From NCBI RefSeq assembly GCF_014822185.1, contig NZ_QVLR01000056.1, positions 186,001-250,000 on the forward strand: a stretch of 64,000 bases of DNA, given 5' to 3'. Below are positions 55,775 to 64,000 of the stretch, piece by piece. The first letter of the stretch is position 1, and each line of letters opens with the position of its first letter. A program made the translations under genes and the position numbers. The DNA is from Azoarcus sp. Aa7. GTDB lineage: Bacteria > Pseudomonadota > Gammaproteobacteria > Burkholderiales > Rhodocyclaceae. The notes under the pieces are model-generated. The model was not told the origin of the DNA and made no database searches. It saw only the letters and a program-made list of their open reading frames with translations.

Positions 55775-56176
55775 TCAACCGAGCACACAGGCTGCCTCCT
55801 TCAGGCGGATGGCGCCGACCGCCCGGTAGCTGCGGGACACGGTCCCCTTGATGCGCACGCGCTGTCCCTTCCTCATGTTCAACAGGTCGCCGCAGCCGTG
55901 GTTGGCGCCGAGGATGACGGTGACGCGCAGGCCGTCGTCGGCGGTGATCTCGAATTCATCCTTGCCGTACACCTGATTGACGGTGCCTGCACCGGCGAAG
56001 GGTTGGTCGGTGCAGGCTTTCTCTGCGGTAGCGTCGAGAAAGTAGGCGGTGTTGGCCTTGTCGCGGTTGAGTTCGTCGAAACCCGCTTTCGAACACGTGA
56101 CTGCGCTCGATGTGGCGGGGGCGAGGAGCAGGCCGGTGGCGATCAAACCCAAGCGGGCAAAGTGGGGGCGTAGCAT
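55775..56176 (-). CDS. Small secreted protein, OB-fold-like, unknown function
   Basis: A 133-residue protein with signal peptide (to SSAVT) and four mature cysteines (TCSKAG, KACTDQ, HGCGDL, AACVLG) that could form two disulfides. The stretch VILGANHGCGDLL, MRKGQRVRIKGTVSRSYR looks like a small five-strand OB fold. It is the last gene of the cytochrome operon, starting 38 bases after the oxidoreductase stop. I do not recognise the family. Confidence 0.65.
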   Translation of the reverse strand: MLRPHFARLGLIATGLLLAPATSSAVTCSKAGFDELNRDKANTAYFLDATAEKACTDQPFAGAGTVNQVYGKDEFEITADDGLRVTVILGANHGCGDLLNMRKGQRVRIKGTVSRSYRAVGAIRLKEAACVLG

Positions 56177-56214
56177 GTTTTGTTTCCTTTTCCTGTTCGA
56201 TTCGTGGGGCGGGG

Positions 56215-57516
56215 CTATTCGGTGCCGTACTTGGTGTCCACCTGGATCCCCATGGCTTTCAGCATTCCGGTCGGGAGGATGCCGCCGGCGCAAACGATCA
56301 CCGCGTCGTTGGCGAAGCGGATCGCCTCGCCCTGGCGGTCGAGCACGGCTTCCTTTTCGTCGATGCGGGCGACCGTCGAGTTGAGGATGACCGTGAGGCC
56401 GCCGCCGCCCTCGGCCGCGGCGAGCCGTTCGCGGTTCGCCTGCTTGACCCGGCCGAAGGCGTCGCCGCGGTAGGACAGCGTGACCTGCGTTCCGGGCTCG
56501 GCCGAGAGCGACACGGCGGCCTCGATCGCGCTGTCGCCACCGCCGACCACCAGCACATGGCGGCCGCGGTGCTCGGCGGCGTCCACGAGGCGATAGACCA
56601 CCTTGGGCAGGTCCTCGCCCGGCGCGCCGAGCTTGCGCGGCGTGCCACGCCGACCGAGGGCGAGGAGCACGTTGCGGGTGTGGTATTCGCCGCGATTGGT
56701 GACGACGAGGAAGCCGGTCCCGGACGGCGTCACCTTCTCGACCCGCTCGTTGAAGTTGATCGGCATCCCCACGCGGTCGGCGATGCCCTGCCACAGTGCG
56801 AGCAGCTTTTCCTTAACGATCTCGCCGAGCTTGAGCCTGCCGGCGAGCGGCAGCGTCACGCTGCGGGTCATCACCAGCTTGTTGCGCGGATACAGGTACA
56901 CGGCGCCGCCGAGGGCGTCCTCCTGTTCGAGGGTGACGAAGCGCAGCTTGCGGTCCATCGCACCGAGCGTCGCAGCGATGCCTGCGGGGCCGGCGCCGAC
57001 GATGACGACGTCGAACTCACCGTCGTCGGCGCGGCGTTTCGCGATCGCTTCCATCGCCTGCCGCCCCTGCTCGTGCGCGTTGCCGATGAGGCCGAGTCCG
57101 CCCAGTTCGCCGGCGATGTAGATGCCGGGCACGTTGGTTTCGAAACTCGCCGCATCGACCTGCGGGATATCCATCCCGCGCTGCGGCGTGCCGTACACCA
57201 GCTTGATCGCCTCGACCGGGCAGGCGGGTGCGCAGGTGCCGTGGCCGATGCAGTGGGTGGGGTCGACCAGGTGGGCCTTGCCGTTGATGAAGCCGATCGC
57301 GTTCTCCGGGCAGGCTCGCGCGCACGCCCCGCCGCCCATGCACACCGCCGGATCGACGACCGGGTAGCGGCTCGACGGCTCGGTGAGGCCGGCCTCGATC
57401 GATGCTTCCAGCACCGCGCGTGAGCGCGCTTCGCGGTGCCGCCGGCGCCAGGCGTGGTAGCCGAATGCGAGGGCGAGCGGAGCGATGTAGAGCGTCCAGA
57501 CCAAGGTGCCGCTCAT
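56215..57516 (-). CDS. Membrane-anchored ferredoxin-FAD oxidoreductase
   Basis: A 433-residue protein: one N-terminal helix (residues 4-21), a ferredoxin-like domain with C59-C65-C69 and C89-H92-C95-C99, and a thioredoxin-reductase-like FAD/NAD(P) part with GAGPAG (174-179) and GGGDSA (325-330). The second Cys of each classical CxxC motif is absent (Gly and His instead). The segment NVPGIYIAGELGG (128-140), normally at the C-terminal end of such FAD domains, here precedes the FAD loop, so the domain looks circularly permuted. It probably moves electrons between NAD(P)H and the adjacent cytochromes. Confidence 0.8.
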   Translation of the reverse strand: MSGTLVWTLYIAPLALAFGYHAWRRRHREARSRAVLEASIEAGLTEPSSRYPVVDPAVCMGGGACARACPENAIGFINGKAHLVDPTHCIGHGTCAPACPVEAIKLVYGTPQRGMDIPQVDAASFETNVPGIYIAGELGGLGLIGNAHEQGRQAMEAIAKRRADDGEFDVVIVGAGPAGIAATLGAMDRKLRFVTLEQEDALGGAVYLYPRNKLVMTRSVTLPLAGRLKLGEIVKEKLLALWQGIADRVGMPINFNERVEKVTPSGTGFLVVTNRGEYHTRNVLLALGRRGTPRKLGAPGEDLPKVVYRLVDAAEHRGRHVLVVGGGDSAIEAAVSLSAEPGTQVTLSYRGDAFGRVKQANRERLAAAEGGGGLTVILNSTVARIDEKEAVLDRQGEAIRFANDAVIVCAGGILPTGMLKAMGIQVDTKYGTE

Positions 57517-61888: not shown

Positions 61889-63906
61889 GCCGCGTGCCGC
61901 TATGCGCGGGACCCGGCACCCTGCTGGTCGCGCTCGGTGCCATCGGCCTGCCGTGCGCCGCGCAGGAGATCGCCCCGTTCCGCATCACCGGCATCGAGGG
62001 CCACGCCGCCGTGCGCTCCTACGCCGATGAGGCCGTCACCGATCCGGGCGGCGGAGGGGGGCGGGCGGCGGCATCCAGTCAGGCGCACAACGAGTTGCGC
62101 TCGGAAGTCTTCGTGATGAGCCACAGCTACATCTTCCATCCCAACTTCCTCGTCCTCGACGTCGGCGGCGGCCCGGTCTACGAGATCGCCGGGTTCGCCA
62201 ACGACGGCGACAAGGCGCGCTCCCGCGCCACGCTGTACAACTTCGTGGGCCGGGCGAGCTTCCTGCGCGGCAAGCCGTTCAGTGGTTCGCTGTTCTACGA
62301 ACATCTGAATCCGACCGTCGCGGTCACCGCCGCCGAGTCGTTCAGGCAGGAAAACTCGCGCTACGGTTTCGATTTCGCACTGTCCGGCCCCGAGGTGACG
62401 ACGCCGATGCGGCTCGAATTCGTCCGCACCCGGTCAGCCGGGCAGGGAGTACAGCGCGTTACCGACGACCGTACCGACAAGCTCACGCTGCAGCTCACGC
62501 GCGCGCACGGCGAACTCGGCGCGACCCAACTGCACTACCAGGCGATCGAGCAGGAATCGCTCAGCGGAAGTCCGAACCTGCCGATCCAGTCTTCGACGTC
62601 CACGAACCATGCCTTCAACGTCGATACCCGGCTGCAGTTCGGCAGCGAGCGCCAGCACGAATTCACCCAGCTCTTCTCGTACGGCAGCCGCCGCTACGTC
62701 GTCGGGGGCGACGCCATGCCGGCGCAACAGGACGCCAACCTGCTGCTCGACGTGCGGCTGAAACCCTCGCCCAGCTTCAGTGGCTTCGGCTCGTGGCACC
62801 TGTCCTACGCGGACAATGGCATGCTCGCGTCGAAGACACAGTCGGTCGCGAGCGGGGTTACCTGGCTGCCGCGTCCGCAACTCGAAGGCGACTTCGGCCT
62901 GCGCGCGGAAGACAGCCGCTCCGGACCGTTCGCCATGGATTCGCGCGGGCTCGACGGCGCGTTGCGCTACCGGTTGCCGATGCCGGTCGGCGAACTGCTG
63001 GCGAGCTACAGCGTCCGCTTCGACCGCCGCAACCAGCATGCCGGCGCTGCGCAGGCGGACGCGATCGGCGAGCGGCTGATTCTCGGTTCCTCCACGACGA
63101 CCCTGGCCCATATGCACATCGTGCGCACGAGCGTGATCCTGAGCAACGCGAACCGGACCCAGGTCTTCGTCGAAGACATCGATTACCGGCTCAACACGGT
63201 GGGCGACGAAACGCGCGTGCAGCGCCTGGTCGGCGGGAACATCGTCGACGGCGAGCCGCTGCTCGCGGATTACGCCTACGATACCGGCGGCACCTTCGCC
63301 CATGACGTGGCCGACCAGACCGCGAACCTCAATTGGCGCCTGTCGCGCTATCTCAGCACCTTCCTCCGCGACTCCCGATCCTCGCCCACGGTCACGTCCG
63401 GCACGCCCGGTTTCGCGCCCGAGGCCCTGCACAGCACGTTGTACGGCGTGCGTGCCGACTTCCCGCTTCAGCTCGGTATCGCGATGACCGTGGGGGGCAA
63501 TGTCGAGCGGGAACGCGTGCGGGAAACGGCGAACCCGCTGACGCGGGCGTCCGACGAGCTGTATCTCGACACCGACGAAGCCCTGTTCGGGCTCGGCAAC
63601 GTCGGCATTTCGCTGCGTCGGCTGCGTGTCGATTACGACGGAGCGGCCGGGGACGTCGACCTGGCGGGCTACGGTCTGCGCTTCTGGACGCGCCGCTGGT
63701 TCGGCATCGACCTGTCGTTCACGCGCAACGAGGAGCGCGATACCGGCGGCCCGTTCCGCCAGCACCGCAGCAACGACGCGATCAATGCCCAGTGGCGCCA
63801 GCGCGAGTTCACCACCACCGCGCGGCTGCTGCGTTCGCGCGAAACCCAGGGCGATTTCGAGCGCGCCCACTGGATGTTCCAGCTTACCGCCCGGCGGGAC
63901 TTCTGA
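61885..63906 (+). CDS. Large outer-membrane beta-barrel protein
   Basis: A 673-residue protein with signal peptide (to PCAAQ) and alternating amphipathic strands throughout, ending in the aromatic C terminus LTARRDF, as in outer-membrane barrels. Repeated strand motifs (FNVDTRLQFGSERQHEFTQL, SWHLSYADNG, ASYSVRFDRRNQ) suggest well over 16 strands. Size and neighbours fit the barrel of a porin-cytochrome conduit, although no MtrB-type CxxC is seen. GTG start overlaps the propeller gene stop. Confidence 0.78.
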   Translation: MSRVPLCAGPGTLLVALGAIGLPCAAQEIAPFRITGIEGHAAVRSYADEAVTDPGGGGGRAAASSQAHNELRSEVFVMSHSYIFHPNFLVLDVGGGPVYEIAGFANDGDKARSRATLYNFVGRASFLRGKPFSGSLFYEHLNPTVAVTAAESFRQENSRYGFDFALSGPEVTTPMRLEFVRTRSAGQGVQRVTDDRTDKLTLQLTRAHGELGATQLHYQAIEQESLSGSPNLPIQSSTSTNHAFNVDTRLQFGSERQHEFTQLFSYGSRRYVVGGDAMPAQQDANLLLDVRLKPSPSFSGFGSWHLSYADNGMLASKTQSVASGVTWLPRPQLEGDFGLRAEDSRSGPFAMDSRGLDGALRYRLPMPVGELLASYSVRFDRRNQHAGAAQADAIGERLILGSSTTTLAHMHIVRTSVILSNANRTQVFVEDIDYRLNTVGDETRVQRLVGGNIVDGEPLLADYAYDTGGTFAHDVADQTANLNWRLSRYLSTFLRDSRSSPTVTSGTPGFAPEALHSTLYGVRADFPLQLGIAMTVGGNVERERVRETANPLTRASDELYLDTDEALFGLGNVGISLRRLRVDYDGAAGDVDLAGYGLRFWTRRWFGIDLSFTRNEERDTGGPFRQHRSNDAINAQWRQREFTTTARLLRSRETQGDFERAHWMFQLTARRDF

Positions 63907-63908
63907 GC

Positions 63909-64000
63909 ATGCTCGCGCGCTTCCGATTGCTCTGTCTGCTGTTCGCGCTGGCGGGCTGTTCGGCCGCGGTGATCGCGCCGCAGCCGAACAGCTCACTTCC
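63909..64000 (+). CDS. Lipoprotein, truncated by the window end
   Basis: The first 30 codons of a gene that continues beyond the window. The signal peptide has a lipobox (LFALAGCSAA). It starts 2 bases after the barrel stop and belongs to the same operon. Nothing further can be said about its function from this fragment. Confidence 0.7.
   Translation, partial: MLARFRLLCLLFALAGCSAAVIAPQPNSSL

What the first reader, a model, noticed from the sequence alone, without database searches (positions are those of the whole stretch)
55775..64000. Divergent cytochrome/propeller/barrel cluster: candidate iron-controlled electron conduit
Minus strand: di-haem cytochrome b, 18-haem cytochrome c, ferredoxin-FAD oxidoreductase and a small disulfide-rich secreted protein, all overlapping or close. 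Plus strand: tetrahaem cytochrome c, NHL propeller lipoprotein, 673-residue outer-membrane barrel, lipoprotein. Together they provide every station from cytoplasmic NAD(P)H to the cell surface. Porin-cytochrome conduits are known in Shewanella and Geobacter, but I do not recognise this gene combination. The direction of flow (metal reduction or Fe(II) oxidation) is open.
Basis: partly seen in the sequence, partly recalled or inferred. Interest (0 to 1): 0.78.

Follow-up and report, generated by a model that had tools for sequence, protein, structure and literature searches.

The report
Hybrid electron conduit with nanowire-like cytochrome
A relocatable set of eight genes in an Aromatoleum-type bacterium appears to wire the inside of the cell to the outside: a known kind of inner-membrane and periplasmic electron module is joined to an outer-membrane module whose small cytochrome is a relative of a protein that forms filaments in Geobacter, so it offers a testable model of how such filaments are anchored to a cell.

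Summary
The genes are real and continue past the window. The plus-strand operon is tetrahaem c, NHL lipoprotein, barrel, second NHL lipoprotein, and a 12-haem c beyond the window end. The tetrahaem is a full-length homologue of Geobacter OmcE, a filament-forming cytochrome (E 5e-22). The 12-haem protein begins with an OmcE-like domain (profile E 3e-51) followed by eight more haems. The minus-strand genes (di-haem b membrane protein, 18-haem c made of six trihaem repeats, Fe-S/FAD protein) match the inner half of the published PCC3 system. Of 80 named loci with a tetrahaem relative, 25 carry the inner genes beside it and 18 carry all eight nearly complete; the outer set without the inner genes occurs in 28 loci of at least 11 phyla. 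I read it as a stable hybrid of a Uet/OmcE-type outer module and a PCC3-type inner module. The 12-haem protein is probably the barrel-spanning wire and first subunit of the filament (inference). A Fur-like box lies at the promoter in four of four Aromatoleum loci. The iron-uptake neighbours are strain-specific. Electron direction is unproven; I lean outward. No structure could be predicted (tool off). New variant of a known kind.

The parts
55775..56215 (-). small secreted protein with 4 Cys, no Pfam family; found only beside Aromatoleum copies of the cluster among the loci read
56215..57513 (-). Fe-S/FAD oxidoreductase with one N-terminal hydrophobic helix followed by RRRHREARSR; the second Cys of each ferredoxin motif is replaced (G/S/A and H) in 29 of 29 aligned sequences
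57513..59042 (-). 18-haem periplasmic cytochrome c, six trihaem repeats of about 68 aa; complete relatives have 18, 21, 24 or 27 haems
59017..59982 (-). di-haem b inner-membrane protein of the PCC3/PCC4 IMP type (WX3HX13H twice, SGXXG); true start probably downstream of 59982
59921..59950 (+). sigma70-like promoter: TTGACA, 18 bp, GAAATT (three relatives: TTGACA, 17 bp, GATATT)
   Evidence: sequence read directly
59959..59977 (+). Fur-like box AATGAGAATCATACGCAAT (relatives AATGCGAATCATTCGCAAT or AATACGAATCATTCGCAAT)
60033..60683 (+). tetrahaem cytochrome c, homologue of filament-forming OmcE (7TFS)
60680..61888 (+). NHL beta-propeller lipoprotein 1
61885..63906 (+). outer-membrane beta-barrel (predicted), 673 aa, C-terminal ...RRDF
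63909..64000 (+). start of NHL beta-propeller lipoprotein 2 (338 aa; L004:10910-11926). It continues beyond the window and is followed by the operon's last gene, a 12-haem cytochrome c with OmcE-like N-domain at L004:11923-13629 (window-equivalent 64922-66628)

Best explanation
It is a complete trans-envelope electron conduit, a stable hybrid of two modules. Inner module (PCC3 type): a cytoplasm-facing Fe-S/FAD protein, a di-haem b membrane protein, and a rod-like 18-haem cytochrome that crosses the periplasm. Outer module (Uet/OmcE type): a beta-barrel that holds the octahaem part of the 12-haem cytochrome, two NHL lipoproteins that probably help assemble or clamp it, and a secreted tetrahaem that polymerises into an OmcE-like filament. 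The 12-haem protein begins with an OmcE-like domain whose C-terminal end, free in the tetrahaem, is continued into eight further haems. I infer that this domain is the built-in first subunit, so the filament grows from it with fixed polarity and is electrically continuous with the barrel wire. In Aromatoleum the plus operon is probably repressed by Fur at high iron. Shown: genes, homology, synteny, motif conservation, box. Inferred: protein locations, filament formation, docking, regulation, and direction; I lean to outward flow (NAD(P)H or quinol to outside), about 60:40.
For: Tetrahaem vs 7TFS full length E 5e-22, vs 9YUQ E 5e-18; 7TFS is OmcE (PMC12954529, passages). The 12-haem N-domain vs 7TFS E 1.9e-30, profile 2.9e-51; profile positions 173-278 vs 6r2q chain A 2e-9 (recalled to be MtrA; the record names the molecule otherwise) and vs 6i5b 8e-6. 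The Cys, Cys and His of all 12 haem motifs are invariant in 36 of 36 aligned 12-haem proteins (36 chosen of 46 parsed). The four distal His of the OmcE-like domain are kept in 46 of 46 N-domains and in 47 or 48 of 48 tetrahaems (one per locus above a score cut). Tetrahaems and N-domains are two sides of a tree, 48 vs 46, SH-aLRT 99. Synteny: inner genes beside the tetrahaem in 25 of 80 loci, all eight near-complete in 18 of 80 (several others are cut by contig ends), 24 divergent and one (L036, titled Rokuibacteriota) collinear on one strand. In the family sample, 11 of 395 genomes have a close tetrahaem (E<1e-85) and 11 of 11 have the 18-haem relative on the same contig within 3 kb. Distances of 27 of 28 gene pairs correlate (Mantel p<=0.002, 17 loci). 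IMP motif 32 of 32. PCC3-like clusters with the same three inner genes in 7 of 7 fetched loci, from 16 candidate genomes.
Against: The tetrahaem family has an extra conserved His (98%) where OmcE and most N-domains have Arg, so its packing may differ from OmcE. Neither half needs the other: the outer set (separate tetrahaem, at least two NHL ORFs, a cytochrome of at least 10 haems) stands without the inner genes within the locus in 28 of the 48 loci that have it (loci reach at most 10 kb to each side), and the inner genes occur in PCC3-like clusters without it. Tetrahaem and NHL2 distances do not correlate (r 0.12, p 0.24). PCC3 and Uet are discussed in the passages I read mainly for Fe(II) oxidation or electron uptake, the opposite of my preferred direction (PMC5566968, PMC10734462, PMC13386937). 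The window copy of the Fur-like box is degraded relative to its relatives, and 3 of 18 non-Aromatoleum promoters score as high against the E. coli consensus.
Confidence: 0.66

Rival explanations
1. The same conduit works inward: electrons from Fe(II), minerals or partner cells enter through the filament and barrel and go to the quinone pool or NAD(P)+, as proposed for PCC3 and Uet.
For: PCC3 was found in Fe(II) oxidisers and modelled as feeding the quinone pool, although its authors say a role in Fe(II) oxidation is not clear (PMC5566968, section 15 and passages); Uet was described in cathode-oxidising Tenderiales and seen in Gallionella (PMC10734462 passages). Loci with all or most of the eight genes include records titled Thiobacillus.
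Against: The probably cytoplasm-facing Fe-S/FAD protein points to a low-potential cytoplasmic partner, and moving electrons inward to it works against the membrane potential (own inference). A Fur-type repressor box would switch the operon off when Fe(II) is plentiful, unless Fur acts as an activator here.
Confidence: 0.3
2. A porin-cytochrome conduit without filaments: the tetrahaem is a monomeric surface or periplasmic shuttle and the OmcE likeness is only fold ancestry.
For: I read no report that a tetrahaem of this betaproteobacterial family polymerises; the extra conserved His shows divergence; one paper disputes the physiological role of cytochrome filaments (PMC11077965, title and start of abstract in search listings only).
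Against: The similarity to OmcE runs the whole length including the N-terminal His motif and the chain end directly after the last haem motif, and 9YUQ, an entry with 16 identical chains whose arrangement I do not know, is similar too.
Confidence: 0.28
3. Chance neighbourhood of unrelated redox genes beside iron-uptake genes.
For: In the window strain the cluster sits between an efflux gene and P19, whose aligned stretches are only 253 bp apart in a congener.
Against: The cluster itself is conserved in 25 of 80 loci and in 11 of 11 family genomes with a close tetrahaem.
Confidence: 0.02

Closest known systems
Uet (undecahaem electron transfer) cluster, UetABCDEFGHIJ, of Ca. Tenderia and some Gallionella
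   Same: tetrahaem (UetA), barrel (UetC), NHL proteins (UetHI) and an 11-12 haem doubled-CXXCH cytochrome (UetJ) (PMC10734462 passages)
   Different: no peptidyl-prolyl isomerase and no trihaem cytochromes in this operon; instead the PCC3-type inner module lies beside it. A cluster closer to Uet in content (PPIase, trihaems, tetrahaems, NHLs, 818-aa barrel-like ORF) lies elsewhere in this genome (C98). No Tenderia sequence was compared directly
PCC3 porin-cytochrome cluster
   Same: IMP with WX3HX13H twice and SGXXG, and a large trihaem-repeat periplasmic cytochrome; the seven PCC3-like clusters read also carry the same Fe-S/FAD protein
   Different: the giant cytochrome (27-61 haems in the seven loci read, two of them cut by the stretch end) and its porin (811 and 858 aa in two loci) are replaced by the tetrahaem/NHL/barrel/12-haem set; IMPs of the two kinds form separate sides of a tree (97/96)
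Geobacter OmcE filament
   Same: full-length sequence similarity of the tetrahaem, haem motifs and distal His, chain end right after the last haem motif
   Different: extra conserved His where OmcE has Arg; polymerisation untested
MtrCAB / PioAB
   Same: principle of a multihaem wire in a beta-barrel; weak profile similarity of the 12-haem protein to 6r2q chain A
   Different: no detected similarity of the barrel profile to any PDB sequence; 12 haems with an OmcE-like start
OetABI conduit with OmcS/OmcX-like extracellular cytochromes of syntrophic sulfate reducers
   Same: porin-cytochrome conduit encoded with putative filament cytochromes (PMC10553843 passages)
   Different: different cytochrome families as described there; no sequence comparison made here

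Membership tests
PCC3 (He et al. 2017) | about 300-aa inner-membrane protein with two WX3HX13H motifs and SGXXG | tested here: met
   invariant in 32 of 32 sequences incl. window; definition from PMC5566968
PCC3 (He et al. 2017) | periplasmic cytochrome with very many haems | tested here: met
   18 haems here; 18-27 in relatives, 24 in seven PCC3-like loci
PCC3 (He et al. 2017) | large extracellular cytochrome plus its porin in the same cluster | tested here: not met
   replaced by tetrahaem/NHL/barrel/12-haem; so not filed as PCC3, only its inner half
Uet | tetrahaem UetA, barrel UetC, two NHL proteins UetHI, 11-12 haem UetJ | tested here: met
   all in one operon by type and haem count; orthology to the Tenderia proteins themselves was not tested
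Uet | PPIase UetB and trihaem UetDEG in the cluster | tested here: not met
   the operon's genes overlap or nearly so and none is of these kinds
OmcE-type filament cytochrome | full-length sequence homology with four haems and conserved distal His | tested here: met
OmcE-type filament cytochrome | polymerises with a haem ligated by a neighbour's His | not testable with these tools
   needs a structure; prediction off
Mtr/Mto/Pio | MtrB/PioB barrel with MtrA decahaem | tested here: not met
   barrel without Pfam match and without PDB sequence match; 12 rather than 10 haems
Fur regulon | Fur box at promoter, shared with iron-uptake genes | tested here: inconclusive
   19-mer with up to 3 mismatches: 4 sites in 5.39 Mb of G000, backwards control 0; other sites at TonB receptors, P19 and a solute-binding protein, two unassigned. 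Fur binding itself untested; the identity of the box as a Fur site is recalled

The most novel reading that the evidence does not exclude
A Fur-controlled cytochrome nanowire used for feeding rather than respiration: under iron limitation the cell builds an OmcE-like filament on a 12-haem barrel wire whose N-domain is the filament's first subunit, pushes electrons from NAD(P)H to distant Fe(III), and takes up the released Fe(II) by its ferrous-iron importers. It would be an assimilatory extracellular reductase and an anchored nanowire-conduit unit defined from genes.
Probability: 0.17. Interest if true: 0.87.

Novelty: new variant of a known kind. Interest (0 to 1): 0.62.

Why it matters
How cytochrome nanowires are anchored and electrically joined to the cell is described in print as not well understood or speculative (PMC10553843 passages; PMC12307469 passages, there about OmcS). 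Here a filament-subunit-like domain is fused to a further eight haems and encoded beside a barrel and a free filament-type subunit; the outer set recurs in 48 of 80 loci over at least 11 phyla. That makes the anchoring question directly testable on one protein. The hybrid also shows that inner and outer halves of electron conduits are exchangeable modules, and points to extracellular electron transfer in cultured Aromatoleum species.

Tried and rejected
Barrel as a synteny probe: only 3 of 399 order genomes matched, the own genome included; it diverges quickly and the cluster is rare, so the tetrahaem was used instead. Functional link to the adjacent FTR1/P19 iron importer: rejected as a conserved feature, P19 or FTR1 hits in 1 of 80 loci (L069) only (loci reach at most 10 kb each side and many are shorter), and the site is empty in a congener. 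Plasmid origin: no match in 72,556 plasmid records. A simple circular permutation to explain the moved small gene: rejected, its strand does not fit. A filter for barrel ORFs by length, Cys count and aromatic end found 39 of 81 loci but missed barrels already known by homology, so it is not used as a count. A first count of the outer set by tblastn (55 of 80) let one NHL gene count for both types and was replaced by the stricter 48 of 80. Fur search with the E. coli-type consensus was weak: 12 of 19 in the window promoter, a score that 17% of shuffles of that stretch reach, and that 3 of 18 non-Aromatoleum promoters also reach (L023 12, L028 12, L029 13). The genus-specific 19-mer was then derived from the Aromatoleum promoters themselves and is therefore not independent for those sites, only for the others.

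Papers: I read passages or named sections found by term, never a whole text (PMC5566968 sections 15, 18 and passages; PMC9473688 section 6 and passages; PMC10734462, PMC13386937, PMC5371394, PMC12575090, PMC10654088, PMC12246660, PMC10553843, PMC12806980, PMC10954620, PMC12954529, PMC12307469 passages). Supplements were not available, so the Leptothrix cholodnii cluster with a porin mentioned in PMC5566968 section 18 may be this same cluster. That the hybrid is not described in print rests on searches of an open-licence library only; the OmcE and nanowire-survey papers themselves are not held.
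Full report
What is there. The window lies at C56:186001-250000 of a 5.39 Mb genome. All genes of the finding exist. Reading past the window, the plus operon is: tetrahaem c (216 aa), NHL lipoprotein (402 aa), barrel (673 aa), second NHL lipoprotein (338 aa), 12-haem c (568 aa; 11 CXXCH and one CX3CH). The minus set is: IMP-type cytochrome b, 18-haem c, Fe-S/FAD protein, small secreted protein. The genus is very probably Aromatoleum: two genomes the tool calls 'same genus' have contigs of exactly the same lengths (26789 and 59599) as the named records of A. 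tolulyticum and A. toluvorans that carry the cluster.

The tetrahaem is OmcE-like. phmmer against all PDB chains gives 7TFS (E 5.1e-22, residues 9-216 to 7-232) and 9YUQ (4.7e-18); the only other hit is at E 0.27. 7TFS is the OmcE filament (PMC12954529, passages). I found nothing on 9YUQ in the paper library.

The 12-haem protein is a fusion. Its first 210 residues match 7TFS (E 1.9e-30; profile of 36 sequences 2.9e-51), and profile positions 173-278 match 6r2q chain A (2e-9; I recall this entry as MtrCAB, although the record calls the chain something else) and 6i5b (8e-6). In 36 aligned homologues (chosen from 46 parsed) the Cys, Cys and His of all 12 motifs and 11 further His are invariant. 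A joint alignment held 48 tetrahaems (one per locus, score at least 150 bits) and 46 N-domains: the N-terminal His, the CHxPH His, the HP His and the CHxxH His are kept in both (98-100%), while HDF in tetrahaems (48 of 48) is mostly HNL in N-domains, and an extra tetrahaem His (98%) is Arg in 89% of N-domains. Tetrahaems stop two residues after the last haem motif (final Lys in 98%), as OmcE and 9YUQ do in the printed alignments; the N-domain runs on into the other eight haems. A quick tree separates the two groups once, SH-aLRT 99. OmcE filaments have a haem ligated by a His of the neighbouring subunit (PMC9473688 section 6).

Synteny. One scan of species genomes with the tetrahaem gave 173 relatives, of which the best 80 loci were returned. 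Of these 80, 25 also hold the cytochrome b and the 18-haem relative (>=45% identity); 18 hold all eight nearly complete, several of the rest being cut by contig ends; 24 are divergent as in the window and one (L036, titled Rokuibacteriota) has all eight on one strand. All 23 loci with tetrahaem identity of 63.5% or more have the inner genes. By record, 23 of the 25 are Pseudomonadota (21 placed in Betaproteobacteria), one Rokuibacteriota, and one titled Chitinophaga pinensis (L032), which may be a labelling or binning error. The outer set, counted as a separate tetrahaem, at least two NHL ORFs and a cytochrome of at least 10 haems, is in 48 of 80 loci: 20 with the inner genes and 28 without, the latter in 11 named phyla; the barrel was not part of this count. 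In the family sample, 11 of 395 genomes have a close tetrahaem and all 11 have the 18-haem protein within 3 kb; of 17 sampled genomes of the genus, 4 have it. Among 17 loci with all eight genes parsed (own included), distances of 27 of 28 gene pairs correlate; tetrahaem-NHL2 do not.

The inner half is PCC3's. 16 family genomes have a strong 18-haem relative (E below 1e-70) without a close tetrahaem. I fetched 7 of them, and 7 of 7 show the Fe-S/FAD gene, IMP, a 24-haem cytochrome and a cytochrome of 27-61 haems, two of these cut by the stretch end. I listed three gene by gene; two showed a following barrel-like ORF of 811 and 858 aa, the third did not within the stretch. [quoted passage not shown] These motifs are invariant in 32 of 32 IMPs. 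The IMP tree puts 25 nanowire-type and 7 PCC3-type on two sides, 97/96. The 18-haem protein is six trihaem repeats of about 68 aa; complete relatives have 18, 21, 24 or 27 haems, i.e. repeats added whole, perhaps a ruler for the periplasm (inference).

The Fe-S/FAD protein. An N-terminal hydrophobic helix followed by RRRHREARSR suggests a cytoplasmic body (positive-inside rule, own reading). In 29 of 29 sequences the second Cys of each ferredoxin motif is missing: CX2[GSA]X2CX3CP and CX2HX2CX3CP. Each cluster would therefore have three Cys ligands, which would suit [3Fe-4S] or a His-ligated [4Fe-4S]; I made no literature search on this.

Iron control. In three Aromatoleum relatives the promoter is TTGACA-17-GATATT followed by a TGCGAATCATTCGCA or TACGAATCATTCGCA box; the window has TTGACA-18-GAAATT and a degraded TGAGAATCATACGCA. 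The 19-mer with up to 3 mismatches has 4 sites in this genome and 4 distinct sites in congener G635, with none for the pattern read backwards. Besides this cluster (one in each) they lie at TonB receptor genes (both genomes), at P19 (G635) and at a solute-binding protein of unknown substrate (G000); two are unassigned. So Fur control is likely in this genus, but binding is untested. Of 18 other promoters scored with the E. coli consensus, 15 scored below the window's 12 of 19 and 3 reached 12 or 13, a level that chance also gives, so control elsewhere is open.

The iron-uptake neighbours. In G635 the aligned stretches of the efflux gene and P19 are 253 bp apart; in the window strain the same two stretches are 11,040 bp apart and the whole cluster lies between them. 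The cluster is therefore a relocatable cassette, and P19/FTR1 adjacency is a feature of this strain; P19/FTR1 hits occur in 1 of 80 other loci. Whether this strain gained it there or G635 lost it was not tested. G+C of the cassette (0.677) is close to its flanks (0.686, 0.709).

Direction. For outward flow: the Fe-S/FAD protein on the probable cytoplasmic side, the membrane potential (own inference), and a repressor-type Fur box. For inward flow: the literature on PCC3 and Uet. I put outward at about 60%.

Verdict. The pieces are known candidates; the joined form, its conservation and the OmcE-fused 12-haem protein were not found in the papers I could search. New variant of a known kind.

Noticed in passing
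window:56215-57513 (Fe-S motifs at residues 58-68 and 88-98): Both ferredoxin motifs lack their second Cys (G/S/A and H) in 29 of 29 homologues, including seven PCC3-type ones; an unusual conserved three-Cys dicluster.
   Followed up: partly
L111 and L112 (G000:C98): The same genome carries a second cluster closer to the published Uet in content: PPIase, 818-aa barrel-like ORF, two tetrahaems, trihaems, NHL proteins, and an 11-haem ORF of 1007 aa about 20 kb away.
   Followed up: partly
L113:6534-8692 (G000:C107): A further OmcE-like cytochrome (5 motifs by CX2-4CH count) next to an NHL lipoprotein, with no barrel-like ORF listed between them.
   Followed up: no
window:50934-55699: P19, porin, cupredoxin, FTR1 and a 4Fe-4S membrane protein: looks like an FtrABCD-type ferrous iron importer (name recalled), with Fur-like sequence upstream of P19.
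   Followed up: partly
L120 (G635) vs L004: Efflux gene and P19 are neighbours in a congener; the cytochrome cassette lies between them in the window strain.
   Followed up: yes
L040, L054, L060, L080: These loci carry three tetrahaem-type ORFs each, suggesting mixed or alternative filaments.
   Followed up: no
window:55775-56215; L015, L019, L104: The small 4-Cys secreted protein lies beyond the Fe-S/FAD gene in the window but beyond the 12-haem gene in three relatives; function unknown.
   Followed up: no
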